Below are positions 1 through 21,794 of a stretch of DNA of 21,856 bases, piece by piece. The notes below the pieces were generated by a model. That model had not been told where the DNA came from. It did not search any database and saw only the letters and a program-made list of their open reading frames with translations. The position numbers and the translations under genes were made by a program. Positions within the stretch are counted from its first letter, which is position 1, and each line of letters begins with the position of its first letter. The DNA comes from a virus: the IMG/VR virus record IMGVR_UViG_3300029994_000024, positions 1 to 21,856 of that record. The stretch is one strand, 5' to 3'.

Positions 1-142
1 GCGGACCATACTGATTATCCTCGGTGTCTTGGATGAAAACATAAAGGTCGGCGGCCTGAAAGAGTTTGAAATTGTAATCGTAAACTGAAACCGCACCATT
101 TCCAACGAATAAACTTCGGCATGTCGTGGACGATATGGACAT
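1..142 (-). CDS. Tail fibre/spike protein, N-terminal fragment (runs off window)
   Basis: An open frame of 47 codons starts with ATG at 142 and runs off the left edge without a stop. The start lies 4 bases after the TAA of the giant internal virion protein, and AAGGGA in that gene's last codons can serve as ribosome binding site. The peptide begins MSISSTTCRSLFVGNGAVSV and continues with DYNFKLFQAADLYVFIQD. This pattern (a short Ser/Thr start, GNG, then an aromatic strand followed by a hydrophobic strand) is what I know from the virion-attachment domain of podovirus tail fibres and tailspikes, where it anchors the receptor-binding protein to the tail. Its place after the internal virion protein genes fits T7-like gene order. 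The receptor-binding part is outside the window, so fibre, spike or depolymerase cannot be told apart. Confidence 0.7.
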   Translation of the reverse strand, partial: MSISSTTCRSLFVGNGAVSVYDYNFKLFQAADLYVFIQDTEDNQYGP

Positions 143-146
143 AGTT

Positions 147-3100
147 TTATCTTCCCTTCTGACCCGTGATAAGTCCACGAGTAAAATCAATCGGACCAGT
201 CGGGTGAGCGTTACCCGAATTAACTTGGTTTAAATATGAGACAGGTTTCGCGAGAGGAGTCACCGGAACACCGGAAATTAAACTCATGAGAGTTAAACTA
301 TCCTTGATGGATTTATCGTCCCACTTTCCAGAGTGAATGGCGTTCTTAATTTCACCTGGAGCATGAATCCCGGCATAGAGTGCATCGAGAGCAGGAGAGT
401 TTAACCTGTCGGCCTCACCCTTGCGTTTTTCGTGAAGCATGGAATCGACCATTGAACCCACGATCGGAATTTCAGCAAGTGTATCGCGACCGATGTTTTG
501 ACCGACTTTGGAAGCGAACGCCTGCCAAGCTCCATCGCCAGACTCATCCCAAGCCTTGCCCGAAAGCGCTATTGCAGCAGTCGTCATCATCATTGCAGGA
601 ATTGCGCTTGTGTACGCGAAAATAGGAAGCGCACGAAAAGCGGCCTGTTTTATGCCTTGAAATTTTAAAGCCTTGTAATACTCACCAGCCTGAAGATTCA
701 GTTTCAGGTTTTGGAATGAGTAAAACCCGAGAAGCGATTTCACGAGAGGCGTCGTGTGTTCGGCGCTACTGATCGAAATCGGTTCCATATTGTGCTGAGT
801 TTGAGAAATTACCGCATCAGCCTTTGCAATTGCCTGATCCTCCGCGTGACCCTGGGAAATCGCGTGATCATAGGACGCTTTCCACATGCCAACATCGACC
901 ACATTTTGAACTGCGTGCTGAGTAAAAAACGAGTTTGCCACGATATATTTTTTTATGTCGCTTGCCGTTCCGGTTCCATTTGCAATATCGTAAAGCGTTT
1001 TACGCATTGTTGTCGAGCGATCATTAAACCTTGAACTCATCCAAGGTGACTTTTCGCTGATCATTTCCTGTGTGCCTTTTGCGTCCTGCATGTAACTCAA
1101 GAATCCTCGAGCAGTGTAAGACGCTGGAATTTCTTTAGACATCGCCATTGGAATTCCATGAAACATCATCAGGGTGTTTCGAGCGTTCAAAAAGAAGACC
1201 ATCGCAGAGTTGTTCGTCCGCAAGTAATTCATGGCCTGATCAAGATAGCGATTCGATCCTGGCTTTCCAGTCGTTTGCTGTTTTGCGCGATCGAGAAACG
1301 GAATCAAAACTTTTTTTGTCGCTTCAGGCAGAATCGAGTCAAAACCCTTTGAAACGCCGCGATCGAGGATCAAACGGCCCACTTGATAAATCGTCGGATC
1401 CATGTGCGTGAATTTTAAAACTTCTCGGACGTGTGAACCAATCAGACCCGGATCAAGGCTCAATGGCACATTGTAATTATCGACTCGCTTTTTAGTGAAT
1501 CCATTGCTAGAACCCGGTAGTAATGAGTATCCAGAATCAGACTCTAGTATCGCTTTACCTTGACGAATTACTTGATCGGTGTATCCAGTTTTTGTTAGAT
1601 CACGATCAGCGGCTGCGGGAATATAACCCCCTTTGTAATCGCCAAAAGGAGTTTGAACAGGAGTATGCTCAACGGTATCAAAATATCGTCCATAGCGTTT
1701 GTAATGGGCTTTCTGTGCATCTGGAAGGAGAGACTCGTTCAAGTCCCACATCCCTTGGACCCAATCCATCATATCTTTGGTTACGCTACCGTCGGTCATT
1801 GCGCGTTTTAGGAATTCGTCCCATTGACTGCGATCAAGATTTCCTTCCTCATCCATAGAACCCCAGCCGCGACCAATGAGGAGTTTCTTGAGATTACTTT
1901 CATTTCCTGAGTGAGCAATAGCCATCATGAGATGCGCCTGATCTGGGAAAAATATGTTTTCACCTTCAGCAGTCTGACCAAGTTCTGGAGCTTCGATTCG
2001 CTCATAACTTAGTTTTTTAAAAATCTTCTCATTCATGTCACTAATTCGATCCTGAGCAGCGTCGTTCGCAAGTCTGAATTTAGATGACGCTTCTTTGATC
2101 GGAAGCCAAAGATATTTATAAAGTGGACTATTTATATCGCCATTTGAAAGCGCATCGACGAAGTGCTCAACCCTAACAAGCATGCTGCCGATCGAGAGAG
2201 CACCCGTAGTGAGATCCTCGAGTTTTGTGGTTTTTCCACCTTCTCCGCGATACTTGCGGAAATTTCCTGGTTTCACGTCTGCAAGTTGATTTCGGGTTTC
2301 TTCTTGAGCTTGGTTTAAATCAACTCTTTCGTTTTGGAGATCAAGCTCACGATTCATTTTTGCCAGATCCCAAAGCGCATCAAGCTGCTCACGAACCGCT
2401 TGGAATTGACCATACGGCATATCGCCATAGGCTTTTAATTGCCCGAGCGACTGGACCTGAGCGACCGATTCATTGTACTGATCGACATCGCCGTATTTTT
2501 TAAGCTTCTCTAAATAATCCTGCGCCTTTTCACCGCGCTCAACTGATCCAATTCCAAGCTGATCAAGAATCACACGACCGGCATTGATCAAATTCATGTC
2601 GCGGGTTTTCGATAGCACGTCATCTTTTTTATTGAAGTCCTTGAATCCATCGACTGATTTTTGAACGTCAGCTTGAGATTCAGAAACAGCTTTATAAAGC
2701 TCGTGATTCAGAAACTCCTGATACTTCGCTTCAAACGCTTTATCCCACGCGCCCTTGAGCGCCTGATTCATCGCTTCGTTTGCGGCCTTGGTTTCAGCGC
2801 GCTGATACAGATAAGGTTTTAAGTCTCGAGTAGATAAAGTCGCAGTGATCGTGTCGGCTTGCTTTTGGAAAGATTCAGCGGTAATTACGCGTTTTCCGAT
2901 CCTGCGCATCAGCTCCTTGTAATCACCTAGCTTATTTTCCATGATCCATTTCAACTCGAAAGCCAAACGAGACGATTCTTTCGCGTTGTGGATGGACTTC
3001 ATCGCTTCTTCTTGCATCTGACCATTAACGGTCGGATCCTCGTAAGCGTAACGCTGCCTCATTTCGTTGTCTGTTTCCTGGCGTATCAGATCGTCTTTAG

Positions 3101-6100
3101 GCTGAGCATTTGCAAGCGCCATCACCAATTCGTGGCCCGAATTAAACCCTAACAATTCAGCGGCCTGTTCGTAGTGAAGGCCGTCTTTGGTCAAAGTCCC
3201 ACGCGGCATTTCTTTTGCGATGTCTTTTCCATAATCCGCAACGATCGTTTTTCGATCGAGTTGAAGATCGACCTTTTGACCGTTTGGAAGTTCACCAGAT
3301 TTAATCGCATCAAGTGCTCGGTATTCTGGACGCGCTTCAACTTCAGCAGTGATTTCACGTTCGACTGATTCGCGCTCAATTTTATACTGTTTCGAGCGTT
3401 CACGTTCGACTGCCTTCATATTTTTAGCGGTCAAATTGTCTTCAGCAGCAGCTCGAGCTTCTTGAACTGTTTTTGCGTATTTTGCCGCATCCTCTGGAGT
3501 CATGAACTTGTGAGGATCAGAAAATAATGGATTTAATCCGACTGAATTCCTTGCATCTGCGATCTCATCGTCAGTCGCGATCATGCGGTCAAAAGCGTTT
3601 CTGACTTCAGGGGTGAGCGTGACATCAGGATGCGCCATCAGTGTTTTATAAGCGTGAATCATCCAAGCTTTGAATGCGGCAAAAGCTTCTCTGAGCGCAG
3701 ATGACGGGGCTTTCCCTTCCATTAGGTATTTCTCAAAACCTTCGGCGATTTTTTCGTGCTGTTCTCGAGTTAGCTCCGATCCATGTTCTGCACCGGCAAA
3801 ATCGTAAAGCGCTCGGTTGATTTCTTTCGTGCGTTCTGAAGCGTCAGGACGACTTGCAAGATCATTTAAAACCTTAGTAAAAAAGTGACCAGTCTCATGT
3901 AAGAACGTCGAAAGGTTTGCGTCTTTTAAAAGTGAAATTGTGGTTTTGTCGGGGTGGAAGGTGATGCCGCCCATTGGATCGTGATCGCCATTTTGATAGT
4001 ATTGATATCTATCGCGTTTTTCTTGGGCTGCAATATCTTTCGTGGAAACAGCATCTTTAGAGCCGATATACTTTACATTTTCAGCGTTTTCGTGTGGGTA
4101 AAAACTTACTACCTGGTCTTGCCATTGTGAAAGATTTTCTAGACCGCCAGTTCGATCAGAAATGAATTTAGCGGTTTCTGCGTGTGTATCTATTCTTCTT
4201 TGTCTGGCTTGCTCTTCAGTCTCACCAGGTCTACTATTCATCCATCCTATGCCGTGCTTTTCAAGGGTAGCAGCATGAGCTGCATCTGAAATTGGCTGAC
4301 CAAAATCGTCCATTCCACGAATTATTAAACCATCGTAACCGTTTTTCTTAAGCCATTCAACGGCCTCATCGCCATTCATTTTAAGGATTTCTCGCGGAAG
4401 GCTTTTTATGGTTTCGGGTGTGATAAGAAGCGCTTTTTTAAAGTTGAGATCTGCCGAGTGAACTTTGTCTCCGGCGATCTGCCCACGGTATCCTCCATCA
4501 CCGGCAACCCAGTTCCCACTTTCATCGAAATAGGTGTGTTTTCCAAAGACGCCCTCACCGCCATCATAACGAATCTCATTACTGACGTGTTCAGGATTTA
4601 TAAAGTGATCTGTTATTCCATGTGAAAGATGCGCTACCCCTAGAAGCTTTCCACGGAAAACTGGACCACTCTTTTTTTCAAGACCATTCGACTGCAAAAA
4701 ATCAAAAAAATCCTTCGCCTGCTTCGGCGAATCCCTGTTCGTTTCGAGCGCTTTTTTGATGGATTCATTATCTGCGTTTTGGATGTCAATTCCTTGACTC
4801 CTAAGATACTTATCCATTTCAAGCATCTGTTCTCGAGTGTCGGCTTTTTCAGGATGGCGATTTCCTTCAGCATACTGTTTCTGACCTTGAGATTCGGCTG
4901 CCACGCGCTGAAGCAATTCTGGGATTGAATGTTCCTTCAGATATCCAGCTTCGTGCGCTTGCTCGGCTGCACGATCAAGATCCATTCCCATTTTTCTTGT
5001 AAGACCTTTTATGTCCATCGCCTGAACGTCGGACCCAGGTCCAGCAGTATTTACGCCGCCTTTTCCTTTCATGAAATCAATCAACGACTGGCCATAGGCC
5101 TCACGCTCGCTTGGGATTTTTCCCTCACGAAGCTTATTCAGGATCGGATCAAACTCATCAATGTTTTTAGATTTTAGCTGATCAGGAAGTGAACGAGTGA
5201 TATCGAGATTGTACCGACTAAAAAGCTCTTCTGGAGTTGTACCTTCAGACTGCGCCATCACATTGAAGAAATTATAAATCGAAGCGTTTTTATCCGCAGT
5301 CGCTTTATCCATTCCGGTCGCCTGAAGTTTTTGGCTAACCTGCTCAATGACGCCGCGACCGAGATCATTGAATGAACCACCGTTATTTGCGACGTGGTGT
5401 TCGTTTTCTCTAGCAATGTCATTCGCTTTAGTAGCCTCAGCGACGGTTGGCTGACCTGGATCAAAGGTCACATGATCGGCCATCGCCTTATAATCTTGAG
5501 GGTCGATTTTTGTCGTCCAATCAGAGAGTGGAATTTTTACCATTCCCCCAGAATCTTTTGCCTGATCGAATTCTTTGCCGATATTGAGATCCGATAAAAC
5601 CTTTGGAAGCTCATCCGGTCCTTTTGACTGGTAAAGCTGAGTCATCGCGTTTGGATCAACATAGACGTGCTCAACGGGTCCGTTTTTGGTCAGCGCATCG
5701 ACGATCTCCTGAAACTTAAGAGGCAGTGTTTTTTTAACTTGAGACGCTTCTGCTGTGTCACCCAAGGACGTGTAAAAATCCTTTTGAAGCTGTGCTTGAC
5801 GAATATCATGCACGCTTGAATGCGCGGACAGTACAGCAGAAGGCGAGACCATGAGAGCACCAGTCGCGCCTCCGATAATGCCACTTTCAATTGCACGTCC
5901 GAAAGTTCCTTCGAGTGCGTTTTTGTTCACCCCGGTCGCGTAGTCGGTTAAATCGTTTGCCACGCTCATCGCGGCCATCGAACCCGCGTCCCTAGTAAAT
6001 GAATAGGTGAGTGCATTAGTAAACGATTTCATCACCGTCGCCGCCGTGGCTTTGCCGTAATTCTGAACCAGGGTTTCACCCCATTTCGCCATTGGTCCAA

Positions 6101-7127
6101 AAGTTCCGACCTCACCCGCGCCCATTGCGACCGCGCCCTGAGTGACTGCATCGAGAGTACCTGTCACCGGCCCCGCCGCTTGGTTTTCAGGCCTGTTTGC
6201 CGATTCAGCGGCCTGCTGACTGCCCATGAGCAAAAGCTTCAGCCCATGCGCCTGGGCACCCCCCACCATCAATTCTGCGAGCTGTGGAGCGCTCTGAACG
6301 AGTTTGGCGAATGCCACACGTCCGGCTCTCGAGTAATTACCCTTTGTGATCTCTGAACTTACCGAATCATTTAAGTCTGAATTTTCGTCAGTGAAGGTCT
6401 TAGCCTGCCGATCAAAGAAGTCGGCGACCATGTTGCTCGTTGGAGCACTTGCCGCCAAGTTACCGAATTGATCAGGATATTTACTCGCTAGATAATTCTG
6501 AGGCCACGCGGCCATATTGTAAGCGAAATTTGGAATCCGAGCGGTATTCGCGAAAAGCTGATTCACGCCGGAACCAAGTGCGTCATAAGCGTCTTTTAGC
6601 ATTCCGTATTCCTGAAGCTGATCGGACATGCTTTTGAGATTCGGCAAATCGTTTTTAATGAGCGGATAATGCAAAGGATTTTGCGCAACCCATGCGGCGA
6701 GCTTCGGATTTGATTGAACGAATTGCTCTGGCGAGAAATTAGCCTGGTTCATTTGCTTCTCGAAACCATCTGGATCTGTCTTAATGAATTCTGGAGCAAT
6801 CCCAGTTTTCATGGATAAATTTAAAACTTTAGCAGCCTGATCTGGAGTTGATCCGTCGGTCGATGCAGCTTGAACTTTCGCAACGGTTTGAGCCTCTGTT
6901 CCCTCCGCAGACAAATCAAACGCACCAATTGGGTATGGATTTGGAGCTTGAGGCGCAGTCGAAAGAACCCTAGTTTGAACTGGCTGAGGAGTCGGTGCAG
7001 GAGCTGGAGCGACTGGTGCAGGAGTTACGGAATTTTCTATTCCAGAACTCGCCGGAGCGGGACCAGCGTTTTGAGGTGGAGTCGTTGGCGCTACGTCCAT
7101 TTTCTGAACTGAAAATTCATCTGCCAT
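147..7127 (-). CDS. Giant internal virion (ejection) protein, polyvalent type, with ART-like and gluzincin domains
   Basis: This 2326-residue protein is the last of three internal virion protein genes and sits where T7 gp16 sits. The start is firm: GGAGG lies 7 bases before ATG, and the start shares its A with the upstream TAA. Visible parts in order: a Pro/Ala-rich N-terminus (about 12-60); an Ala/Gly-rich region (about 280-440); an ADP-ribosyltransferase-like domain (about 823-1015; VFRG at 823, GGEGVFGKHTYF at 856-867, GYDGLII at 930, VVSFYP at 1006); HETGH at 1077-1081 with a downstream FEKYLMEG containing E1132, the arrangement of a gluzincin metallopeptidase; a charged, probably coiled-coil stretch (about 1220-1290); long helical regions; and a hydrophobic segment at about 2167-2190. 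The domain mix matches the large polyvalent proteins of phages and conjugative elements, which are injected with DNA. It is much longer than T7 gp16 (about 1300 residues), and I see no lytic transglycosylase signature. The family call is strong; enzyme activity is inferred from motifs only. Confidence 0.85.
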   Translation of the reverse strand: MADEFSVQKMDVAPTTPPQNAGPAPASSGIENSVTPAPVAPAPAPTPQPVQTRVLSTAPQAPNPYPIGAFDLSAEGTEAQTVAKVQAASTDGSTPDQAAKVLNLSMKTGIAPEFIKTDPDGFEKQMNQANFSPEQFVQSNPKLAAWVAQNPLHYPLIKNDLPNLKSMSDQLQEYGMLKDAYDALGSGVNQLFANTARIPNFAYNMAAWPQNYLASKYPDQFGNLAASAPTSNMVADFFDRQAKTFTDENSDLNDSVSSEITKGNYSRAGRVAFAKLVQSAPQLAELMVGGAQAHGLKLLLMGSQQAAESANRPENQAAGPVTGTLDAVTQGAVAMGAGEVGTFGPMAKWGETLVQNYGKATAATVMKSFTNALTYSFTRDAGSMAAMSVANDLTDYATGVNKNALEGTFGRAIESGIIGGATGALMVSPSAVLSAHSSVHDIRQAQLQKDFYTSLGDTAEASQVKKTLPLKFQEIVDALTKNGPVEHVYVDPNAMTQLYQSKGPDELPKVLSDLNIGKEFDQAKDSGGMVKIPLSDWTTKIDPQDYKAMADHVTFDPGQPTVAEATKANDIARENEHHVANNGGSFNDLGRGVIEQVSQKLQATGMDKATADKNASIYNFFNVMAQSEGTTPEELFSRYNLDITRSLPDQLKSKNIDEFDPILNKLREGKIPSEREAYGQSLIDFMKGKGGVNTAGPGSDVQAMDIKGLTRKMGMDLDRAAEQAHEAGYLKEHSIPELLQRVAAESQGQKQYAEGNRHPEKADTREQMLEMDKYLRSQGIDIQNADNESIKKALETNRDSPKQAKDFFDFLQSNGLEKKSGPVFRGKLLGVAHLSHGITDHFINPEHVSNEIRYDGGEGVFGKHTYFDESGNWVAGDGGYRGQIAGDKVHSADLNFKKALLITPETIKSLPREILKMNGDEAVEWLKKNGYDGLIIRGMDDFGQPISDAAHAATLEKHGIGWMNSRPGETEEQARQRRIDTHAETAKFISDRTGGLENLSQWQDQVVSFYPHENAENVKYIGSKDAVSTKDIAAQEKRDRYQYYQNGDHDPMGGITFHPDKTTISLLKDANLSTFLHETGHFFTKVLNDLASRPDASERTKEINRALYDFAGAEHGSELTREQHEKIAEGFEKYLMEGKAPSSALREAFAAFKAWMIHAYKTLMAHPDVTLTPEVRNAFDRMIATDDEIADARNSVGLNPLFSDPHKFMTPEDAAKYAKTVQEARAAAEDNLTAKNMKAVERERSKQYKIERESVEREITAEVEARPEYRALDAIKSGELPNGQKVDLQLDRKTIVADYGKDIAKEMPRGTLTKDGLHYEQAAELLGFNSGHELVMALANAQPKDDLIRQETDNEMRQRYAYEDPTVNGQMQEEAMKSIHNAKESSRLAFELKWIMENKLGDYKELMRRIGKRVITAESFQKQADTITATLSTRDLKPYLYQRAETKAANEAMNQALKGAWDKAFEAKYQEFLNHELYKAVSESQADVQKSVDGFKDFNKKDDVLSKTRDMNLINAGRVILDQLGIGSVERGEKAQDYLEKLKKYGDVDQYNESVAQVQSLGQLKAYGDMPYGQFQAVREQLDALWDLAKMNRELDLQNERVDLNQAQEETRNQLADVKPGNFRKYRGEGGKTTKLEDLTTGALSIGSMLVRVEHFVDALSNGDINSPLYKYLWLPIKEASSKFRLANDAAQDRISDMNEKIFKKLSYERIEAPELGQTAEGENIFFPDQAHLMMAIAHSGNESNLKKLLIGRGWGSMDEEGNLDRSQWDEFLKRAMTDGSVTKDMMDWVQGMWDLNESLLPDAQKAHYKRYGRYFDTVEHTPVQTPFGDYKGGYIPAAADRDLTKTGYTDQVIRQGKAILESDSGYSLLPGSSNGFTKKRVDNYNVPLSLDPGLIGSHVREVLKFTHMDPTIYQVGRLILDRGVSKGFDSILPEATKKVLIPFLDRAKQQTTGKPGSNRYLDQAMNYLRTNNSAMVFFLNARNTLMMFHGIPMAMSKEIPASYTARGFLSYMQDAKGTQEMISEKSPWMSSRFNDRSTTMRKTLYDIANGTGTASDIKKYIVANSFFTQHAVQNVVDVGMWKASYDHAISQGHAEDQAIAKADAVISQTQHNMEPISISSAEHTTPLVKSLLGFYSFQNLKLNLQAGEYYKALKFQGIKQAAFRALPIFAYTSAIPAMMMTTAAIALSGKAWDESGDGAWQAFASKVGQNIGRDTLAEIPIVGSMVDSMLHEKRKGEADRLNSPALDALYAGIHAPGEIKNAIHSGKWDDKSIKDSLTLMSLISGVPVTPLAKPVSYLNQVNSGNAHPTGPIDFTRGLITGQKGR

Positions 7128-8959
7128 TACTGGCCTCCCATGATGGCTCTAACTTGTTGAGCATTTGCACCACGGATATAAGCACCATAGGCCTTCTCGA
7201 AATTATTTTTATATTTAGAAGTTGCCACATCAAGCGGAGTATTGACTGGAATACCTCCGGCCTGAACGCCCATTTGATACAGTTGTTGAGTTTGATTTTG
7301 TGGAATATTCTGAACGCGAACTCTGATGTTTCCGCGCTGATCGGGTGGAACTTGAAACAACAGTTTGTCTTGCTCTGAATTTCCGAACATTCCAGGAGTC
7401 GAAGTAAATACCTTTTGTGTCGCAATTTTATTTGAAATTGCTTGAACTTCATCCGGCTTGAGTGGGCGACCTTGGAGTTGTTGTTGAGTGTCGATCTCAG
7501 TTTGAACCGCACTCTTGTAATCATCGTAAGCTTGTCTTACTGGAGCATCAAAATTATTATATTTCTGACCAGGTTGTGCGCCATTTATTCGAGTATTCGT
7601 GAAAGACTGAAGCGCTATACCGTCAATCCCAAATAACTGATTTGCTTTTGCAAGCGCTGCCTGATTTCCGCCAATACCTTCTCGAGCTTGAATCCACTGA
7701 GCTTGAACTTTTTGATAATCATAATCGCTTAAGTTTGGACGAACTTTAAGTGCCATTTCTGCCTGAGAAACTTGTCCAAGTTGAGCAGGAGGCATGCTTG
7801 AATATTGCTGCAAAATCTTATCGTTGGTCTGAATCGGTTGAGCGCCATTCGTATTATTTGCGAGTTTCTTAATGGCATCTGAAGTCGCTGGATCAAGTTG
7901 TTGCTGAATTGACAACGGAACTTGGTCAAAATTTCCTGTTTTTGTGACAATATCTATAGCTTGCATTGCGGTTTGATCGCGCTGCGTTTGGGTTTGTTTA
8001 TCCTTGATAGACATGAGGGTCTTAACTCGTTCACGCGTTTGATCCTGTAATTTTTGATCTTTGATTCCTTCGATCTCAGATTCCGCAGAACTCATATCCG
8101 AATGATTCGCTACAATTCCTTGAGCCGTAGTTTGAGCGGTTTGCTGCAAAACTCCTTCTTGAACAAGCTTATCCATTGCGATAGAAGTTTTTGAATCGGT
8201 GATTTGATTTTTAATAGACTCGTAATAATCTTTTCCTTGATCGGCTTGACCATTAGCAAAATATTTCTCAACCACCCCTGAATACATTTTACTTAAGGCG
8301 TTTCCTTGAGCTGCATTTATTTCATCAGTGCTTTGACCATGAGTAAATCCGTAGGCCTGAGCGGTTTTTATGATTTCTTCTTTTGCCGCGTTTACAGCAT
8401 CAGAATCGCTGTATTGTTGAACCCCACTGTTCACTGAATTTTCAAGTGAAGTGTCGTAAGTAGCTTGCTGAAAACGAGTCTGCTCTGCGCTGATATGAGT
8501 TTGAAGAACCTTGTTTTGAACATCCCAAGAATCAGACGCAGCATTTGCAAAAAATTGTTTCTGCTGAGGTGTGGGCAAGTTCGACATTTTATCAGAAACC
8601 CAGTCATTATATGACTGCTGATACTGATCAAAAACAGCGTGTGCATTTTGTCCAGATCCCTGAATCTTTTCAAGAGCACCAGGAACGTGCTGACCTGTGG
8701 TTGGATCTGTGTAACCATACAGACCGTTCGACTTGAACGTGTCAACCTCGTTCTTATTCTGCATGTTCGCAGCAAGTGTCGCCGTATTGAAAGATTGTTT
8801 AGCAAGTCCCTCAACTGTATTTCCAAGATTTGCGATTGCAGCCTCTGGACCAGTCTGAACGCTTCCACCGCCAAAAGCCTCGAGCGGAGCTTGCGTATTT
8901 ACATTCGGAGTTGGAAAGTTAGTTTCCTGAAGTTGTGTATTGAACTCTTGATTAGGCAC
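7127..8959 (-). CDS. Internal virion protein, gp15-like (ejectosome core)
   Basis: A Gln/Asn-rich, mostly helical protein of 610 residues between the gp14-like and giant gp16-like genes, the place of T7 gp15. I choose the GTG at 8959: the sequence GGGAGGAG stands 6 bases before it, and the start overlaps the stop of the upstream gene (TAA at 8954-8952) by 8 bases. In-frame ATGs at 9001 and 9013 would lengthen the protein by 14 or 18 residues but have no visible ribosome binding site. The protein has no signal peptide or membrane segment. Its long amphipathic regions with regularly spaced Gln resemble internal core proteins that form the periplasmic part of the DNA ejection channel. The stop overlaps the next start by one base (TAATG), so the two are probably translationally coupled. 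No catalytic motif is visible. Position and composition, not a diagnostic motif, carry the assignment. Confidence 0.72.
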   Translation of the reverse strand: MPNQEFNTQLQETNFPTPNVNTQAPLEAFGGGSVQTGPEAAIANLGNTVEGLAKQSFNTATLAANMQNKNEVDTFKSNGLYGYTDPTTGQHVPGALEKIQGSGQNAHAVFDQYQQSYNDWVSDKMSNLPTPQQKQFFANAASDSWDVQNKVLQTHISAEQTRFQQATYDTSLENSVNSGVQQYSDSDAVNAAKEEIIKTAQAYGFTHGQSTDEINAAQGNALSKMYSGVVEKYFANGQADQGKDYYESIKNQITDSKTSIAMDKLVQEGVLQQTAQTTAQGIVANHSDMSSAESEIEGIKDQKLQDQTRERVKTLMSIKDKQTQTQRDQTAMQAIDIVTKTGNFDQVPLSIQQQLDPATSDAIKKLANNTNGAQPIQTNDKILQQYSSMPPAQLGQVSQAEMALKVRPNLSDYDYQKVQAQWIQAREGIGGNQAALAKANQLFGIDGIALQSFTNTRINGAQPGQKYNNFDAPVRQAYDDYKSAVQTEIDTQQQLQGRPLKPDEVQAISNKIATQKVFTSTPGMFGNSEQDKLLFQVPPDQRGNIRVRVQNIPQNQTQQLYQMGVQAGGIPVNTPLDVATSKYKNNFEKAYGAYIRGANAQQVRAIMGGQ

Positions 8960-9608
8960 TGAAGGCTCCTCCCATTCCGTAGTACCCGGCTTTTGAGCCA
9001 TATGCAGCCGCATTTAGACCGCCAGTGAGAAGAGTAGACGTAGATTGGCCTTGAGCTGCGATTTCGCCAATTTGCGCTTCGCCTTGTTCTTGGGTAGCGC
9101 TAACTTCATAGCCCCATGCCTGTCTTGCAGCATTATTACGAGCCGTAAGAGCATCGAGGGCGGTCATAGCCTGAGTTGAACTTTGAGTTGCGGCGGCAGA
9201 ACCAGCGTTTACGTTTACGCCGCCCGCTGCTTCGCTTGTTCGCTCGGCACCAACTTGTTGCTGACCTGATCGCTCGATTTGTTCGGCTTGATGTTCTCCT
9301 TCATCTAGCGCACCCTGGGCTTGAACCTGAGCAATCTGTGCTTTGAAGTTTAACTGCTGAGATGCATACTTCGCCTGCATTTGAAGTGCATTTGACTGAA
9401 AGATAGAAGATGCAATAGAACTGAACGCGTTTAGAGCCATTCCGCCTGCGGCGATTCCATTGGGACTTATTCCACCACCACCGGGTTGAGGGATGCTAAG
9501 AACTGGATTAGAAATGTCAGCTCCATAGGGATTCGTTCCAACTCCGAGAGACGGATCAACTCCCCATGAATTTCCACTTATAGGCGCGTTGTAATCAAAA
9601 GCACTCAT
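8952..9608 (-). CDS. Internal virion protein, gp14-like
   Basis: This 218-residue protein has a Gly/Pro-rich start (1-55), a short hydrophobic helix (about 54-72, GMALNAFSSIASSIFQ), a long Gln/Ala/Glu-rich amphipathic helix (73-125), and the motif DALTARNNAARQAWGY at 152-167. The Asn-Asn-Ala...Ala-x-Gly-Tyr signature followed by an Ala/Gly-rich tail recurs in the small internal virion proteins of podoviruses (T7 gp14 type), which insert in the outer membrane as the first piece of the ejection channel. The start is the ATG at 9608 with GGGAG 6 bases upstream; it overlaps the preceding gene by ATGA. The last codons (GGA ATG GGA GGA GCC) double as ribosome binding site of the next gene. The Gly-Tyr-Tyr-Gly-rich C-terminus is typical of this group in my recollection. 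Confidence 0.78.
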   Translation of the reverse strand: MSAFDYNAPISGNSWGVDPSLGVGTNPYGADISNPVLSIPQPGGGGISPNGIAAGGMALNAFSSIASSIFQSNALQMQAKYASQQLNFKAQIAQVQAQGALDEGEHQAEQIERSGQQQVGAERTSEAAGGVNVNAGSAAATQSSTQAMTALDALTARNNAARQAWGYEVSATQEQGEAQIGEIAAQGQSTSTLLTGGLNAAAYGSKAGYYGMGGAFSA

Positions 9609-12493
9609 TTCTTGCTCCCTCCACCCATCGGAATGTCGCCTGATGGAATGATCGATAAAATAGCCAAAGGAATAGGATCTACTCCACGAACGAAAACACG
9701 ACCATTTCTATTGTCTGTCGTCATGATGTTCACTTTTACAACGTCATCATGGAGACTAACCGGCTGTTCATAATTCTCTTCATTTCTAACTTTGTATTCC
9801 ATCAGATTGCACAATGGATCTTCATTTGATAAATCAATAAGTGGATCGTTTGCGGAAGCGAGCTGACCGATTCCTGCGAAAAATCCTCGTGACTGATTCA
9901 AGTTCACGGCGACCTGATTAATCCGTTTCGAGTAAAGTCTGATCGCAGAGTCACTAGGAGAATCAATATCAAGCGTTTCTAGATCGGAAATGTACGGTAG
10001 ACCAACTTGAATAATTCCATAAGGACGCGGAAGGGTTATGTAACCATTTGTCACTGTAAGCTGAGTTTCAAATTCATCATTATTTGGACTGGCAATAACA
10101 TACCCATCTCCAAAAACCGAAACCGTTTGTCCTTCTAAATGCCAGAGTCCCTGTAAAATACTGATTGAAGTAGCCCACTGCCAGAGAGCAACGTCTTGCA
10201 TGTCAACTGGATAGTTTGGACCGGATGGAAATCCTTGCACTACCGTAGTGCTCACATAAGCCGTAATGTTGAACTGATAAACCTCGCCCGTTCCAGGATC
10301 TTGAAACTGAAGCCCCTGGCCCACCATTCCCGCATTAAATAATGGAACGGATCCGGTCGCATCAAGCAAGTCTTCTGAAGTCCATCCACCCGTTGTCGTC
10401 GTAAGCGTAATTGTTGGACCACCGATATCGGCAGGAGTTGTGTTCCAGCCATTATAAGAAATGTTAGAATCAACTCCAACGAAATTTTGAATTTCAGTCT
10501 GAGTTCTAGTATCAAGTTTTTCAACGTAGCGCTTGGTTACTCCATTGATCACACGGCGAATAACCATGTAAACAGAATCCTCATTGATAAAAGGATCAGG
10601 AATTGAAACCACATTCTCTACGAAACCAGCCTGATAGGTGTTCTGGAAATCGTGTCTGTGCCAGCCCCATATTTGCTGTTCTTTAACGTAGGTAAGCCCA
10701 AGCAAAATACCGTCTTCTCGAACTGCCCAGACAATTGAGTTTGGAATTTGCTGATAACACCAATCAACAATCGTGTGATTTTCAAACAAATGACTTGAGA
10801 AAATTGTCAAATCATTCCCAATGTAACCCTGCGTCTGCCACATGAACGCTAGATCTCGAACGATGTTTCCGCGAGCTTGAACATAGAGCGCTGTCTGACC
10901 AATCACGATTGGTTTTAAATCAGTGCAACCATAAGCCGTTTGTTGTTGAAGGTAAATATTTGATGGTGTGATGGCACCCTGACTTTGACTATTCACGGCC
11001 CATTCACCTTTTTCGGTAAGGATAATCATTCCGCCAAGATCCAATATGTGCTTGATCGGATTAATCTGAGAACCAACCATATCGAATTCAACGCCATCAG
11101 ACGCAATCGAAGGAATGGAGACATTAAAATTCAAATATTTTCCCGTCTGACTCATCTCTACTCGCTCAGGAAAATTAACTAAATTCCCATAAGTAAGCCG
11201 CTGTTGAACATAGGCCACACAACCGGGATTACCGCCGATTGATGTAATGAATGGATTTCTGAAAGTTTGAGGAGGCTGTGCTTGGTCAGGATCGGCACCA
11301 GTATCGACAAAAGAATACGTTGGTCCAAATGACGTGTACCCTATCGAACTTGGTCCTGTTCCACTAACTTTTGTTAATGTGCCACTTGCCGGAGGGATTG
11401 TTGTTCCAGATACCCATAGCGTTGAGCTTGCTGTCGTAGTGTTCACAACGGTATAATTTTCTCCTCCCGTTGAGTAAATTGCTCCCGCTGTTACACTTTC
11501 GATTGCCGTTAAATTAAAAAAAGCCCCCGATGGAGTGCCCGTAGTAGATCCAATGAAACCGTAAGAATTACTTCCAGCGGCATCCATTGTTTTATAAACA
11601 TTGTATAAAATATTGGTCAATTGGCCTTCAAAATAAATGGTATTTGGATTCGTCCCGGTAGCAGTACCAGGCGCAGTAAGTGCAACCGATGGCAACGACT
11701 CCTCGTAACTGACTTCATTGATCGCACTTACAACGTATGAATTTTGCGGCGTACTTGATGGGCCAGCGATTTCAAAAATTGACGGATAGAAAGTGTTCAC
11801 TCCAATTACGGTCGGTGCCATTGTCCAATCGGTATTACTTACAAAATTTAACTGCTGAGCTATATAGTCACTGTGTGCAAATTCCATCACGTCGATGGAT
11901 TGAGCGAATTTTACAAGCGGTAGGTCTGTATAGGCATAAGGCGTTCCGATTTCATAAATCTCAAGTGCCTTGCCACCGCTCGTATAAGCAGAAAACGTGC
12001 TCGAGTTAATGTTATTGCCAGATAGGTCTTTAATTTTAAAACTCGTACCAGTTTCGCCATAGGTTTCAAACGTCCTGTTATTCAACTGCCACATTCCACC
12101 GATTCCAGTCAAGTAAACTTGTTCGGCAATGTACACATTTGAAGTAACCGTCACGATGGTCTCACCACCAACCGATTGAATATTCGTGATCGTTTCAGAC
12201 AAATCAGTAACGTATTGATCTTGATAAATCACTCTAAAATAATTCTGACCAGCCTCAAGAACGTAATTTACGGTTTCTGATACTTCAAATGGAAATAATC
12301 TCACCGTGTCGGCAGAGTTCATGACTTCGCCCAGGTAATTCGTTCCGGGACGATTGGCAGCGCCACCGCTCTTCATAATGAGAAAATTCCTAAGCGTCCT
12401 TAGACCTTCAGTGTATTTACTCTCATCACAGCGAGCATAGAGCTTTGGCGATAACTCGCCACCTACGAATGATCTTTGGGCTACTGAACTCAC
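9605..12493 (-). CDS. Tail tubular protein B (gp12-like nozzle protein)
   Basis: A 962-residue, beta-rich protein that forms the lower tail tube of podoviruses. The N-terminus (FVGGELSPKLYAR at 9-21, then GLRTLRNFLIMKSGGAANRP at 30-49) is diagnostic of the family. Residues about 105-180 (LTGIGGMWQLNNR, then SAYTSGG) look like the FCCH-type beta domain often found in these proteins, and about 245-327 look fibronectin-III-like (SYVVSAINE, NVYKTMD, YGFIG). Residues about 328-393 seem to be an extra insert that splits the usual strand leading to FVDTGADPDQAQPP (395-408). The start is a GTG at 12493 overlapping the upstream stop as GTGA; there is no clear ribosome binding site, so re-initiation after tail tubular protein A is likely. 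It is longer than T7 gp12 (about 790 residues). The C-terminal stop overlaps the next ATG as ATGA. Confidence 0.9.
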   Translation of the reverse strand: MSSVAQRSFVGGELSPKLYARCDESKYTEGLRTLRNFLIMKSGGAANRPGTNYLGEVMNSADTVRLFPFEVSETVNYVLEAGQNYFRVIYQDQYVTDLSETITNIQSVGGETIVTVTSNVYIAEQVYLTGIGGMWQLNNRTFETYGETGTSFKIKDLSGNNINSSTFSAYTSGGKALEIYEIGTPYAYTDLPLVKFAQSIDVMEFAHSDYIAQQLNFVSNTDWTMAPTVIGVNTFYPSIFEIAGPSSTPQNSYVVSAINEVSYEESLPSVALTAPGTATGTNPNTIYFEGQLTNILYNVYKTMDAAGSNSYGFIGSTTGTPSGAFFNLTAIESVTAGAIYSTGGENYTVVNTTTASSTLWVSGTTIPPASGTLTKVSGTGPSSIGYTSFGPTYSFVDTGADPDQAQPPQTFRNPFITSIGGNPGCVAYVQQRLTYGNLVNFPERVEMSQTGKYLNFNVSIPSIASDGVEFDMVGSQINPIKHILDLGGMIILTEKGEWAVNSQSQGAITPSNIYLQQQTAYGCTDLKPIVIGQTALYVQARGNIVRDLAFMWQTQGYIGNDLTIFSSHLFENHTIVDWCYQQIPNSIVWAVREDGILLGLTYVKEQQIWGWHRHDFQNTYQAGFVENVVSIPDPFINEDSVYMVIRRVINGVTKRYVEKLDTRTQTEIQNFVGVDSNISYNGWNTTPADIGGPTITLTTTTGGWTSEDLLDATGSVPLFNAGMVGQGLQFQDPGTGEVYQFNITAYVSTTVVQGFPSGPNYPVDMQDVALWQWATSISILQGLWHLEGQTVSVFGDGYVIASPNNDEFETQLTVTNGYITLPRPYGIIQVGLPYISDLETLDIDSPSDSAIRLYSKRINQVAVNLNQSRGFFAGIGQLASANDPLIDLSNEDPLCNLMEYKVRNEENYEQPVSLHDDVVKVNIMTTDNRNGRVFVRGVDPIPLAILSIIPSGDIPMGGGSKK

Positions 12494-13254
12494 CAGTCAC
12501 CATCCCAACCACCACCCCAGCCACCGTCTCGCCCCCACCGTCCGGTTGTCATTCTAGCTCTAATCCATTCTGCCTCTGGTTCGCGGTCAACCTGTTCTTC
12601 TTGGGCAGAGTTGTCTTGGGCTTTTGCGAGTTCCATTTGATACAGACCCATCATTTTCTGAGTCAGATTAAATGGATCACCCGCAGTAATGATTGGTGCG
12701 ATATTCGAAGCAAGCCTTAATGCCGCAGACATGATAAAATCAACCGTGTAAGAGCTTGAGTTTGGATTTTGAAACGTGTATTCAATTTCAGCCGCAAACC
12801 ATGGTCCAGGAAGATTCGATGGCGAAGGACCAGACCCAAACGATTGACCACAATTAACGCCCCAGTCGGTATAAATCAAATTGCTGGATGGATCATTGGG
12901 ATTCGAAACCACTTTAAAAGGAACTCTGGACTCTCTGGTATCTGTCCTGCGATAGCTTAAGATCCTTCTAACCTTAAGACAGTCGGCAGGATACCCATAG
13001 GCAAATCTCCACTCACGCGTCGGGCAACGCTGAACCAGTGGCAATGTCGCGAACTTAGTCGCAAACGTCCACCAATAATCCTCGAGCGTTTGAGTGACCG
13101 TGATCGCGTAAAACTGACGACAGGCATTAGCTTCAGCCGAGCGCTCTGTCGTCAGATTCGCAATCTGCTTATTGATTCCTAGACGGGCAATCGCAATATT
13201 CGATATATTTGTCGCCGTGTCGTCAAAATTCAGAATCGTATTCTGATTCTGCAT
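12490..13254 (-). CDS. Tail tubular protein A (gp11-like adaptor)
   Basis: A 254-residue protein that, in podoviruses, sits between portal and tail nozzle as a dodecameric adaptor. Family signs are ISNIAIARLG (17-26), a stretch ending in RQFYAITVTQTLEDYWWTFA (46-65), the EWRFAYGYPADCLKVRRI segment (81-98), and a helix near 172-215 with AALRLA. The start ATG at 13254 overlaps the upstream TAA by one base. A weak AGGGA lies about 12 bases before it. The C-terminus from about 237 is unusual: RWGRDGGWGGGWDGDW, only Gly, Trp, Asp and Arg. The matching DNA is a G-rich minus-strand tract that runs straight into the GTG start of the next gene. The next gene (tail tubular protein B) is its expected partner, which supports the call. 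Confidence 0.88.
   Translation of the reverse strand: MQNQNTILNFDDTATNISNIAIARLGINKQIANLTTERSAEANACRQFYAITVTQTLEDYWWTFATKFATLPLVQRCPTREWRFAYGYPADCLKVRRILSYRRTDTRESRVPFKVVSNPNDPSSNLIYTDWGVNCGQSFGSGPSPSNLPGPWFAAEIEYTFQNPNSSSYTVDFIMSAALRLASNIAPIITAGDPFNLTQKMMGLYQMELAKAQDNSAQEEQVDREPEAEWIRARMTTGRWGRDGGWGGGWDGDW
12491..12545 (-). other. G-rich tract at the tail tubular A/B junction
   Basis: On the minus strand the last codons of the gp11-like gene are dominated by runs of two to five G separated by one to six bases (GGTGGGGGCGAGACGG, then TGGGGTGGTGGTTGGG). The tract codes for the Gly/Trp-rich tail and ends at the GTG start of the gp12-like gene. It could form G-quadruplex-like or other RNA structure and influence re-initiation, but that is inference from base composition only. 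Confidence 0.35.
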
Positions 13255-13580
13255 TAAGTGAAGTTCCCTACTGCTAATACCGATACGCTTGCTCCAGTAT
13301 TAACCGCCCATGGACCAACTCTTGATCTTATTCCAAGCAGAACAACAAAAGGTTTTATATCCGAAATCGTTCCACCCACAAAAATAGTGATCGCAGTTCC
13401 AGTGGAACTGTCTCGAATCTGAACCGTACCGGGTGTGGTAGTCGCAGGAATAATAACCAATTCCGAAATAATGTCACCCTGAGATCCTGCACCGTTTGGA
13501 CTCTCTAAAACTTGCCAACTGGAAGACGCAGGAACTAGTTGAAAACTTGTACTAAAAGCGCCTAATAAACCATTTCCCAT
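13254..13580 (-). CDS. Small beta-rich structural protein (head/neck region)
   Basis: This 108-residue protein starts at ATG 13580 with a very strong site (AAAAAAAGGAGGATCAG before ATG). The sequence is almost entirely short hydrophobic and Thr/Gly/Ser-rich strands (IISELVIIPATTTPG, GTAITIFVGGTI, SVSVLAVGNF), with no Cys, no signal peptide and no membrane helix, which suggests a compact beta-sandwich virion protein. It lies between the cement/acidic protein pair and tail tubular protein A and overlaps the latter by one base, so it is expressed with the neck genes. I do not recognise a named family. A neck, decoration or head-closure role is possible and unproven. Confidence 0.7.
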   Translation of the reverse strand: MGNGLLGAFSTSFQLVPASSSWQVLESPNGAGSQGDIISELVIIPATTTPGTVQIRDSSTGTAITIFVGGTISDIKPFVVLLGIRSRVGPWAVNTGASVSVLAVGNFT

Positions 13581-13600
13581 CTGATCCTCCTTTTTTTAGA

Positions 13601-13635
13601 GTGAGGCCTGAGTGTCATAACTACCCAAGCCTCAC
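13601..13635 (-). promoter_or_regulatory. Stem-loop upstream of the 13580 ribosome binding site
   Basis: The minus-strand transcript can fold GUGAGGCUUGGGU with ACUCAGGCCUCAC, a 13-bp stem with two G-U pairs and a 9-base loop. It fills the gap between the acidic protein gene and the beta-rich protein gene and ends about 10 bases before GGAGGA. After the stem comes UCUAAAAAAAGGAGG, so there is no U tract and it does not look like an intrinsic terminator on this strand. An RNA-processing or message-stabilising element is the more likely role. Confidence 0.55.
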
Positions 13636-13647
13636 ACTATAGGTCAT

Positions 13648-13998
13648 TTAAATAACAGCATCCGAGTCGTGACCTTCGCTCAGTTCTGTATCGTCAAGCT
13701 CCGCTTCCTGCTCGACATCATCGTCAGGATTGCTAGGTTCTTCATCCTCGTGTGGAGGTGGTGCTTTAACAGTTGGAAGTAATTTGACTACCTTTTTACC
13801 GTTCGACTTAAGCAGATTGTGCTTGTGGCGTTCCCACAATTTTGGATCTGATTGAAGCGCGGTATCGAGAGCAGAATCAAGAGACTTCATCCATACTGAC
13901 GAAAATTCTTTCGCTTTCTTGATGAAGAAAACCTTTCCCTCTGTTCTGCGTTGGTCGCCATAATAACCGTCTGCTAAGGCCTTTACTTTGTACGCCAT
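13648..13998 (-). CDS. Small head-associated protein with acidic tail
   Basis: A 116-residue protein starting at ATG 13998 with AGGAG 7 bases upstream. The first 40 residues (MAYKVKALADGYYGDQRRTE followed by GKVFFIKKAKEFSSVWMK) show the pattern VKA...GYYG...R..G.VF......S.WM that I know from short proteins encoded next to capsid genes in many tailed phages. A basic middle (52-78) is followed by a strongly acidic tail from about 84 to the end. It lies directly after the cement protein gene with 12 bases between. A role in head assembly or completion is inferred from position. The exact function is unknown. Confidence 0.72.
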   Translation of the reverse strand: MAYKVKALADGYYGDQRRTEGKVFFIKKAKEFSSVWMKSLDSALDTALQSDPKLWERHKHNLLKSNGKKVVKLLPTVKAPPPHEDEEPSNPDDDVEQEAELDDTELSEGHDSDAVI

Positions 13999-14010: not shown

Positions 14011-14445
14011 TTAATGGCCAGCGATTACGAATCCAGACGGATAGTCTGTGTACGCATCGATAGCTTCCTGAGGTTGCAAGTATGAACTCAGGGTGATGGT
14101 TGGTGATGTTCCACCAAGGATATAGTACAAGCGCAAGAATTCAAGCGTTGTAACTAAACCCTCTGGAAGTGGGATAAAGATTTGAGCGCCAGCCACAAGC
14201 GTCGCCGCAGGGATTGTCACGTCAAACAAGTTCACAGTACTTCCAAAACCGCTTGATGCAGACGACTGTAATTGGAACTCGTAAGTTCCACCTGACGCCG
14301 CTGTCACACTCACGGTAATTAAAACACCGAGCTGTTCACCTTGTTGAATCTGACGAGATTCGCTCAGATCGATATAGTTAGTTGACGCCGCAGTAGCAGT
14401 GAGTGCTACATTGGAGTCGAATTGGTTTTGTGCATCTAAAATCAT
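14011..14445 (-). CDS. Capsid cement (decoration) protein, Bbp16-like
   Basis: I place the start at ATG 14445, where AAAGGAGACTAAA precedes it; a longer frame from ATG 14514 would run through a strong stem-loop and has no ribosome binding site. The 144-residue product begins MILDAQNQFDSNVALTATAA and has TNYIDL (22-27), GEQLGVLITVSV (36-47), TYEFQLQSS (54-62), IPLPEG (91-96), LRLYYILGGTSPTITLS (104-120), a beta-sandwich profile. This matches my knowledge of the Bbp16 cement protein of Bordetella phage BPP-1, whose dimers sit on the outside of the capsid at the twofold axes. The gene directly follows the major capsid gene, as in BPP-1. Confidence in the family is high; the oligomeric state here is inferred. 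Confidence 0.85.
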   Translation of the reverse strand: MILDAQNQFDSNVALTATAASTNYIDLSESRQIQQGEQLGVLITVSVTAASGGTYEFQLQSSASSGFGSTVNLFDVTIPAATLVAGAQIFIPLPEGLVTTLEFLRLYYILGGTSPTITLSSYLQPQEAIDAYTDYPSGFVIAGH

Positions 14446-14477
14446 TTTAGTCTCCTTTAATAAGTTTTTGGTTATTA

Positions 14478-14508
14478 CAGAGGCTCCGGAAAAATTCCGG
14501 AACCCCTG
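14478..14508 (-). promoter_or_regulatory. Stem-loop between major capsid and cement genes
   Basis: The minus-strand RNA CAGGGGUUCCGGAA can pair with UUCCGGAGCCUCUG across a 3-base loop, giving up to 14 bp with two G-U pairs. It begins 13 bases after the capsid stop codon and ends about 20 bases before the AGGAG of the cement gene. What follows is UAAUAACCAAAAAC, not a U tract, so it is not a classic intrinsic terminator. It may protect the 3' end of the capsid message, mark a processing site, or partly attenuate transcription. Confidence 0.6.
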
Positions 14509-14520
14509 TATCAATAAAAT

Positions 14521-15543
14521 TTAGGTCACTTCTGCTTCTGCGTTTGTCAGAGCATCGACAATTCGGATTGGGATCCCACGAAACGTAGGGACGTTTTTAC
14601 CGTCTACAGTTTCGTAAGTGATACCACCACCGCCGCCTGATCCTGATGGACCACCAGCGAGGTACTCGAATCGTTGAATGTCGAGCATCTGGAACAGGGT
14701 ACGGTTCATATAGAAGCATGGTTTACCCATCTTCATGAACGGGATACGGTGAACCATTTTGATCATACCTTTGACCAAGTTCGCAGCAGAGGACTCTGTT
14801 ACGAGGTTTGTGGTATCGATGTTAGCGAAACGGACGACATAACGCCAGTCACGAAGTGCGAGACCATTTTTCCATTGGAAGTGTTCGCGATACGCTTGCA
14901 TCCTTGAACCAGCCACGCCTGCGGTGACTTCGATAGTCACTTCGCCATGATCGGTTTGTTTAATTCCGGCCATTGACCCTTTAGGGAAAATACCGAAACA
15001 AGTTTGCTCGCCCCAACACACAAGCCAAATGGAAGCGTTGTCCGAAGACGTTCCACCACCTTGGATGATGTTCTGACCATTAAGCGCCTCAAGAGACGAA
15101 TAACGAACTGAGAAGCCATTGAACTCTTGAGGAGTCGTGCTTACGTTTCCGTAGAACAACACACTCGCCATAGATTGGTTCATCGCTTCTAAGAACGCAA
15201 CAGATTCAGAGTGACGGAATGCCGCCACGTCACCGTTAAGTTCAGCTAGGTCTTTATCCACTTCCGAATAAGCTTCCAACATGCCACAGTTCTCATCGAC
15301 CTGAGCGGTTGTGCTTTTAGAAGGTGGAATACCCATGTTCAACAAACGCCAGTAAACGGTAGGCAAGCCTGTCCGAATGGTCGTTCTGTGACCTGTTTCA
15401 AGATTTCCTTCTTTGAACAACATGTCTAAAAGAATGTCATTCGCCTGGTTAAGAATCTCAACTACCTTAGCAACTTTTCCGTTCGGATCTTTCCGTTTTG
15501 CCCAGTCAGTGAGAGTAAGACAATTTGCGCCTATAGCACCCAT
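14521..15543 (-). CDS. Major capsid protein, BPP-1 type (HK97 fold expected)
   Basis: A 340-residue protein between scaffold and cement genes. The start ATG at 15543 has AAGGGG about 10 bases upstream. The N-terminus (LTLTDWAKRKDPNGKVAKVV at 9-28, then LNQANDILLDMLFKEGN) and the central GLPTVYWRLLN and VDKDLAEL segments fit the capsid family that goes with Bbp16-type cement proteins. Other parts are a tryptophan-rich middle (SIWLVCWG) and an Arg-Asp-Trp-Arg-Tyr-Val segment. A Gly/Ser-rich loop, GGPSGSGGGGG, lies near 296-306, probably an exposed loop. No protease domain or cleavage site is obvious. Length is close to the roughly 330 residues known for BPP-1. It should be the most abundant virion protein, and the stem-loop just after it is consistent with separate message control. 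Confidence 0.88.
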   Translation of the reverse strand: MGAIGANCLTLTDWAKRKDPNGKVAKVVEILNQANDILLDMLFKEGNLETGHRTTIRTGLPTVYWRLLNMGIPPSKSTTAQVDENCGMLEAYSEVDKDLAELNGDVAAFRHSESVAFLEAMNQSMASVLFYGNVSTTPQEFNGFSVRYSSLEALNGQNIIQGGGTSSDNASIWLVCWGEQTCFGIFPKGSMAGIKQTDHGEVTIEVTAGVAGSRMQAYREHFQWKNGLALRDWRYVVRFANIDTTNLVTESSAANLVKGMIKMVHRIPFMKMGKPCFYMNRTLFQMLDIQRFEYLAGGPSGSGGGGGITYETVDGKNVPTFRGIPIRIVDALTNAEAEVT

Positions 15544-15556
15544 TTTTTATTACCCC

Positions 15557-16601: not shown

Positions 16602-16603
16602 AT

Positions 16604-19559: not shown

Positions 19560-19562
19560 TTG

Positions 19563-19611
19563 TAATCATGATTAAACCGATTTAAACGGTTAGCAATGAA
19601 ATAATTACATG
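19563..19611. promoter_or_regulatory. Operator-like palindromes upstream of the helix-turn-helix gene
   Basis: The gap between the large terminase stop (19636) and the regulator start (19559) is AT-rich and holds a perfect 12-bp palindrome, TAATCATGATTA (19563-19574), directly followed by an imperfect 17-bp one, AACCGATTTAAACGGTT (19575-19591). Farther on, TAATTACATG (19602-19611) echoes the first. Side-by-side palindromes just before a Cro-type gene are what an autoregulatory operator looks like. I see no convincing sigma-70 promoter in the gap. Confidence 0.45.
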
Positions 19612-19635
19612 TTTAATTAACGCGCTGTATATGAA

Positions 19636-21687: not shown

Positions 21688-21693
21688 ACCCAC

Positions 21694-21781: not shown

Positions 21782-21794
21782 CTGAAGAATGTTT

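What the first reader, a model, noticed from the sequence alone, without database searches (positions are those of the whole stretch)
4082..4661. ADP-ribosyltransferase-like domain inside an ejected virion protein
Residues about 823-1015 of the giant internal protein carry, in order, VFRG, GGEGVFGKHTYF, GYDGLII and VVSFYP...NVKYIGS. This order matches the ART-type domain described in phage polyvalent proteins (VFRG-like first strand, a G.G.hT.F turn, GYDGI, then VVF.P..IK). If active, the phage would deliver a host-modifying enzyme along with its DNA. The last motif departs from the usual form (QDQVVSFYP, with Asp/Gln where a Glu is often expected), so the domain may be altered or inactive.
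Basis: partly seen in the sequence, partly recalled or inferred. Interest (0 to 1): 0.6.

Follow-up and report, generated by a model that had tools for sequence, protein, structure and literature searches.

The report
New ADP-ribosyltransferase-like domain in injected protein
A giant protein that this virus of bacteria probably injects into its host carries a small domain resembling enzymes that tag proteins with ADP-ribose; it belongs to a group that public family libraries lack and that sits in the virion proteins of several otherwise unrelated viruses.

Summary
The motifs are present at the stated place in an intact 2,326-codon gene, the counterpart of Bordetella phage BPP-1 bbp10. The broad call, an ADP-ribosyltransferase (ART)-like domain, nevertheless holds. 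The domain belongs to a coherent subfamily that I assembled from 17 other viral contigs and one isolate (Acinetobacter phage Aristophanes). A profile of nine of these, without the window's sequence, finds it at E about 1e-17; the closest relative is 34% identical over 189 alignment columns. The subfamily profile aligns with ART-PolyVal along its whole length (hhalign 97%; 200 shuffles reach at most 3%). Conserved are His (H833 here, not the Arg of VFRG), Tyr (Y866), the Asp of GYDG (D932) and QxQ (Q1003/Q1005). QxQ occurs in every complete member, so it is a family trait, not decay. The domain fills a swappable slot before a zincin peptidase: bbp10-type relatives carry ART-PolyVal, PBECR nuclease, GNAT or RadC domains there, or nothing. 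It also occurs in otherwise unrelated giant virion proteins. Best reading: a new ART subfamily, passed between phages as an injected-effector cassette. Activity, target and packaging are untested.

The parts
147..7127 (-). Giant virion-cassette protein P0001 (2326 aa), counterpart of Bordetella phage BPP-1 bbp10; last gene of the structural cassette in the window
   Evidence: ORF without internal stop; tblastn to bbp10-type proteins of BPP-1, PfDIW6, HU1, DC33 and others; phrog_9880, E = 6e-301
4053..4682 (-). ART-like domain, about residues 816-1025
   Evidence: Family HMM built without this sequence, E about 1e-17; hhalign of the family with ART-PolyVal 97.1%; BLAST with the L155 protein 34% over 189 alignment columns
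4629..4631 (-). H833, most likely counterpart of the family's conserved strand-1 His
   Evidence: BLAST with L155 pairs LGVAH with LNARH without a gap; the family HMM pairs it too; some MAFFT and hhalign runs choose H836 (window 4620-4622) instead
4653..4655 (-). R825 of VFRG: start of the conserved F-x-G, not the catalytic position
   Evidence: The position is K, S, R or A in relatives
4530..4532 (-). Y866, counterpart of the strand-2 Tyr (G-x-Y-x-T of ART-PolyVal)
   Evidence: Tyr in all aligned subfamily members
4332..4334 (-). D932 of GYDG
   Evidence: Asp in all aligned subfamily members and in 20 of 20 non-redundant ART-PolyVal domains
4113..4121 (-). Q1003-D-Q1005, QxQ motif before the last strand; Q1005 lies at the position of PARP's catalytic Glu
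   Evidence: QxQ in all complete subfamily members; the equivalent of Q1005 is Glu in 12 of 18 ART-PolyVal domains
3885..3899 (-). Zincin motif HETGH (residues 1077-1081), conserved in bbp10-type relatives
   Evidence: H, E and H invariant in alignment A2
6612..6857 (-). LPD22, large polyvalent protein associated domain (residues 91-172)
   Evidence: Pfam PF18834, E = 7.7e-8, above its cut-off
4728..5906 (-). Conserved block before the slot (residues 408-800)
   Evidence: Aligns with PfDIW6, HU1, Carin1, SAC and others; in HU1 and PfDIW6 it is joined to the zincin part with nothing, or about 17 residues, between
159..3995 (-). Conserved zincin plus C-terminal region after the slot (residues 1045-2323)
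   Evidence: 24-31% identical across bbp10-type phages; 80 metagenomic viral loci kept
7127..9608 (-). Two genes before P0001: gp15-like protein (7127-9013, endolysin PHROG) and gp14-like internal virion protein (8952-9608)
   Evidence: phrog_10475, and phrog_418 'internal virion protein', E = 7.9e-23

Best explanation
Residues about 816-1025 form a divergent ART-superfamily domain of the PARP/diphtheria-toxin-like, ART-PolyVal side (His, Tyr, acidic residue). It belongs to a subfamily without a model in Pfam or NCBIfam. It sits as an exchangeable effector cassette in the giant internal protein of a BPP-1-like podovirus. The protein is most likely built into the particle and ejected with the DNA; the zincin domain next to it may cut the domain free. 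In the cell the domain is expected to bind NAD+ through H833 and Y866 and to move ADP-ribose onto a host macromolecule, favouring early infection. Shown by computation: membership of the subfamily, its profile relation to ART-PolyVal, the conserved residues, the modular slot and the virion-gene setting. Inferred: packaging, ejection, cleavage, catalysis, target.
For: Family HMM without this sequence finds it at E about 1e-17; 34% identity over 189 alignment columns to an otherwise unrelated giant protein. Family versus ART-PolyVal: hhalign 97.1%, score 70.1, aligned from the His to the last strand; best of 200 shuffles scores 20.5. At the same place in relatives, ART-PolyVal (PF18760, E 1e-20 to 1e-23) is the commonest recognised content. 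dN/dS 0.09-0.19 in six member pairs. Hosts of the domain lie among virion genes in the loci checked. A published survey of polyvalent proteins predicts packaging, injection and zincin processing for such proteins (PMC5512222).
Against: No significant hit in Pfam, NCBIfam or PDB sequences. Taken alone, the sequence aligns with ART-PolyVal mainly through the GYDG block; the first and last thirds of a two-sequence profile do not beat shuffles. The AlphaFold model is weak (mean pLDDT 60.7) and its alignment contained ART-PolyVal rows; without an alignment no fold was obtained. Gln stands at the PARP Glu position throughout the subfamily. The place of the His is not fully certain (H833 or H836). 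No virion proteomics.
Confidence: 0.72

Rival explanations
1. ART fold, but no longer an enzyme: the conserved Gln in place of the PARP-type Glu marks a family that only binds NAD+ or ADP-ribose, or serves as a binding or spacer module in the ejected protein.
For: Q1005 sits where PARP has Glu988 (my reading, from general knowledge of PARP1) and is Gln in all complete members; in ART-PolyVal the position is Glu in 12 of 18.
Against: His, Tyr and the GYDG Asp are kept in all other members; the published description of ART-PolyVal names His, Tyr and Asp as the active site (PMC5512222); the PARP-Glu position is not conserved within ART-PolyVal itself; dN/dS 0.09-0.19 speaks against simple decay, though not against a binding role.
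Confidence: 0.2
2. Not an ART: a separate fold of phage virion proteins that shares a helix-GYDG-strand with ARTs by chance or by very distant ancestry.
For: From single sequences the link rests on the GYDG block; no known structure or Pfam family matches.
Against: With a profile of 12 members the match extends over 136 columns with the motifs in register, 97.1%, against at most 3% for shuffles; no stretch of any window protein without the GYDG block scores more than about half as high as the domain (15.5 against 30).
Confidence: 0.08
3. A structural or assembly module of the particle, kept for a virion role and unrelated to NAD+.
For: All hosts of the domain that could be placed lie among virion genes.
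Against: It is dispensable for the backbone: HU1 and PfDIW6 lack it, the Klebsiella relative of the L142 protein lacks it exactly, and relatives carry unrelated enzyme domains in the same slot.
Confidence: 0.1

Closest known systems
ART-PolyVal (Pfam PF18760), ADP-ribosyltransferase of phage polyvalent proteins
   Same: Same slot in the same kind of protein; same motif order: HG, G-x-Y, a hydrophobic strand ending in N-P or K-A, GYDG, V-V-x-F-x-P-x-x-x-K; hhalign 97% with the subfamily.
   Different: No Pfam hit, so below the family's own threshold; Gln instead of the common Glu before the last strand; RY and T-P motifs that ART-PolyVal lacks; long insert between GYDG and the last strand.
Aristophanes 'putative internal virion protein C' (QNO11464.1), Acinetobacter phage
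   Same: The only isolate in 50,697 phage records found to carry the domain; HG, Y, GYDGLIIR and QNQIVAF present.
   Different: The protein around it is a T7-type internal virion protein, not bbp10-type; annotated without any ART.
Bbp10 of Bordetella phage BPP-1
   Same: Whole-protein counterpart of P0001, about 25% identical.
   Different: Its slot holds a PBECR1 nuclease-like domain instead of an ART; the record calls it 'crystallin beta/gamma motif-containing'.
T4 Alt
   Same: Model for an ART packaged in the phage head and injected (PMC5512222).
   Different: R-S-E active site and a stand-alone protein; the Arg is not conserved here.
PARP catalytic domain (tankyrase) and diphtheria-type toxins
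   Same: 49 of the 50 PDB structures listed for the guided model are tankyrases (E 0.075 and weaker, TM at most 0.31); the ART-PolyVal profile weakly matches diphtheria toxin and exotoxin A at the His and Tyr motifs.
   Different: Gln instead of the catalytic Glu; matches are weak and the model was steered by its alignment.

Membership tests
ART-PolyVal, PF18760 | Passes the Pfam model's gathering score (31.2 bits) | tested here: not met
   No PF18760 hit for the whole protein or the domain; a local ART-PolyVal HMM gives only 11-16 bits, shuffles up to 9.8
ART-PolyVal, PF18760 | His, Tyr and Asp in the active site (PMC5512222) | tested here: inconclusive
   Y866 and D932 of GYDG present; the His is H833 by BLAST and HMM, H836 by other alignments. 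The text read does not say which Asp is meant
ART-PolyVal, PF18760 | Sits in a multidomain polyvalent protein encoded among virion genes | tested here: met
   LPD22, zincin motif, slot domains, virion gene order
ART superfamily | Profile similarity to known ARTs along the whole domain | tested here: met
   hhalign 97.1% of the subfamily with ART-PolyVal over 136 columns
ART superfamily | Split-sheet ART fold | tested here: inconclusive
   Guided AlphaFold model, pLDDT 60.7; PDB search gives mostly tankyrases but E at least 0.075; no fold without alignment
ART superfamily | NAD+-dependent transfer of ADP-ribose | not testable with these tools
   Needs purified protein
R-S-E ARTs (T4 Alt, C3-type) | Catalytic Arg in strand 1 and an E/Q-x-E motif | tested here: not met
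   R825 is K, S, R or A in relatives; the last motif is QxQ
New subfamily (Aristophanes / L109 / L113 / L142 / L155 type) | Significant match to a profile built without the query, with H, Y, GYDG and QxQ | tested here: met
   62-63 bits, E about 1e-17; motifs
Polyvalent proteins | Packaged in the particle and ejected into the host | not testable with these tools
   Inferred from gene order only

The most novel reading that the evidence does not exclude
A separate ART subfamily with His, Tyr, GYDG and an obligatory Gln in place of the PARP Glu spreads as a mobile effector cassette among the ejected proteins of at least five unrelated phage lineages, and uses its altered active site for a chemistry or a target (for example a nucleic acid or a small molecule) different from known phage ARTs.
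Probability: 0.2. Interest if true: 0.75.

Novelty: new variant of a known kind. Interest (0 to 1): 0.48.

Why it matters
ARTs in ejected phage proteins are a known theme, but this subfamily has no model in the libraries searched, so annotation misses it. Its conserved Gln makes a clear test case for what the acidic residue does in phage ARTs. The slot survey shows bbp10-type proteins exchanging one effector domain between fixed parts, which offers a list of candidate early-infection effectors (ART, GNAT, PBECR, RadC and unknown ones) at one recognisable position. Aristophanes provides a laboratory phage in which to test it.

Tried and rejected
Direct library searches of the domain gave only weak partial hits: DUF7307 E = 0.0066, phrog_2378 E = 0.0013. 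tblastn of the domain in plasmids: nothing credible. Two scans of bacterial and archaeal genomes found no relative. First viral scans found only a contig identical to the window; the DNA pattern for GYDGLIIR opened the family. AlphaFold without alignment failed (pLDDT 35.6). Rejected: VFRG as the catalytic strand of an R-S-E ART; 'last motif altered' as a sign of decay. I also dropped my early view that H836 is the catalytic His, in favour of H833, after the closest relative was found.

Full report
What the window is. The window is a fragment of a BPP-1-like podovirus: small and large terminase, head-tail connector, scaffold/protease-like protein, capsid, tail tube, a gp14-like internal virion protein, a gp15-like protein and the 2,326-aa protein P0001. 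It is identical, over all the parts compared (1-13995 and 14100-21800), to part of a 43,191-base viral contig. P0001 is the counterpart of bbp10 of Bordetella phage BPP-1 and of large 'hypothetical' or 'crystallin beta/gamma' proteins in other phages.

The observation. All quoted motifs are there at the stated residues. Pfam finds only LPD22 (residues 91-172) above its cut-off in P0001; no ART family is hit by the whole protein or by the domain alone, nor by NCBIfam or PDB sequences.

The slot. In two relatives, Pseudomonas phages HU1 and UFJF_PfDIW6, the blocks before and after residues 811-1048 are joined with nothing, or about 17 residues, between them. In others the place holds different domains: PBECR1 in BPP-1; PBECR5 in Carin1 and Ab9; PBECR3 in L068; ART-PolyVal in JessA, DC33, ctQRb9 and ctEw122; GNAT in Vibrio phage 1.185.O and in L025, L032 and L061; RadC in L035; LPD3 in L039 and L101; an unassigned sequence with an HEVLH motif in SAC. 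Of 80 metagenomic loci kept for the region after the slot, many carry ART-PolyVal at this place. A zincin motif, HETGH, follows directly and its H, E and H are invariant in the alignment.

First link to ARTs. An HMM built from the ART-PolyVal domains, without the window's sequence, scores the domain 11-16 bits, just above the best of 5,000 shuffles (9.8), and Aristophanes 19.7. hhalign gives 38% for the single sequence and 88% together with Aristophanes, but nearly all the signal comes from the block ending in GYDG; the other two thirds do not beat shuffles. On this evidence alone the call would have stayed open.

The subfamily. A scan of viral contigs for DNA encoding GYDGLIIR and two profile-guided scans brought in 17 other viral contigs (L109, L112, L113, L116, L117, L119, L120, L123, L127, L129, L142-L145, L149, L150, L155); with Acinetobacter phage Aristophanes there are 18 relatives. 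An HMM of nine of them finds the window's domain with 62-63 bits, E about 1e-17, over model positions 14-190. The nearest relative, in L155, is 34% identical over 189 alignment columns, while the rest of that 2,481-aa protein shows no similarity to P0001. With 12 members, the hhalign match to ART-PolyVal rises to 97.1%, score 70.1, and can be followed over 136 columns from the HG motif to the last strand; 200 column shuffles reach at most 20.5. None of the members tested in Pfam had an ART hit.

Active-site residues. In the subfamily the strand-1 His, the Tyr, the GYDG Asp and QxQ are each present in all full-length members; the exceptions in the final count come from L156, a weak ART-PolyVal-like fragment that slipped into the alignment. 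VFRG corresponds to a conserved F-x-G, whose middle residue is K, S, R or A. The window's sequence has two His nearby; BLAST with L155 and the family HMM choose H833, some multiple alignments H836. In 20 non-redundant ART-PolyVal domains the GYDG Asp is invariant, while the residue before the last strand is Glu in 12 of 18. The survey that defined these ARTs names His, Tyr and Asp (PMC5512222); the text read does not give the position of the Asp, so I cannot say whether it is the GYDG Asp. QxQ is a shared trait of a domain under purifying selection (dN/dS 0.09-0.19), not a local change.

Other hosts of the domain. Aristophanes: internal virion protein C of an Autographiviridae phage. L135 (the same contig as L116) and its like: a giant protein related to one of Pelagibacter phage HTVC103P; the aligned part of that protein does not include the domain. 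L142: a giant internal virion protein in which the flanking blocks are contiguous in a Klebsiella phage, so that the domain is a clean insertion. L138 (the same contig as L119): a gene between connector and capsid genes; L143 and L149 look alike by gene order but were not tested. L155: a giant protein whose C-terminal part resembles proteins annotated as DarB-like antirestriction or transglycosylase. So the domain has moved between unrelated proteins of the particle.

Structure. AlphaFold without alignment gave nothing usable (35.6). With an alignment that contained ART-PolyVal rows it gave a weak model (60.7) whose listed PDB matches are, all but one, tankyrase PARP domains, and whose viral matches include several named ART-PolyVal. 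This agrees with the ART reading but is not independent of it.

Conclusion. The domain is most likely a new ART subfamily used as an exchangeable, injected effector. Catalysis, target, cleavage and packaging remain to be shown.

Noticed in passing
window 3995-4728 (slot between residues 800 and 1045) and loci L003-L103: bbp10-type giant proteins exchange one domain at a fixed place before the zincin: ART-PolyVal, PBECR1/3/5, GNAT, RadC, LPD3, DUF7178, an HEVLH-bearing sequence, or nothing.
   Followed up: partly
L087 and L088 (residues 697-835 and 1737-1863), L093 (699-836 and 1832-1958): Two ART-PolyVal domains in one giant protein.
   Followed up: no
L110:8025-8516, minus strand: Short ORF (164 codons stop to stop) with GYDGLIIR on a 210,983-base viral contig, possibly a stand-alone ART-like protein.
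   Followed up: no
L013 (PQ492659.1, Limnohabitans phage DC33): The record's taxonomy says Inoviridae, but it is a 39 kb genome with a bbp10-type giant protein; probably misassigned.
   Followed up: no
window 6612-6857, minus strand: LPD22 near the N-terminus of P0001; the polyvalent-protein survey lists LPD22 among potentially enzymatic domains of unknown function.
   Followed up: no
L007 and other bbp10-type records: The product name 'crystallin beta/gamma motif-containing protein' is carried by several bbp10-type proteins, although Pfam finds no such domain in P0001.
   Followed up: no
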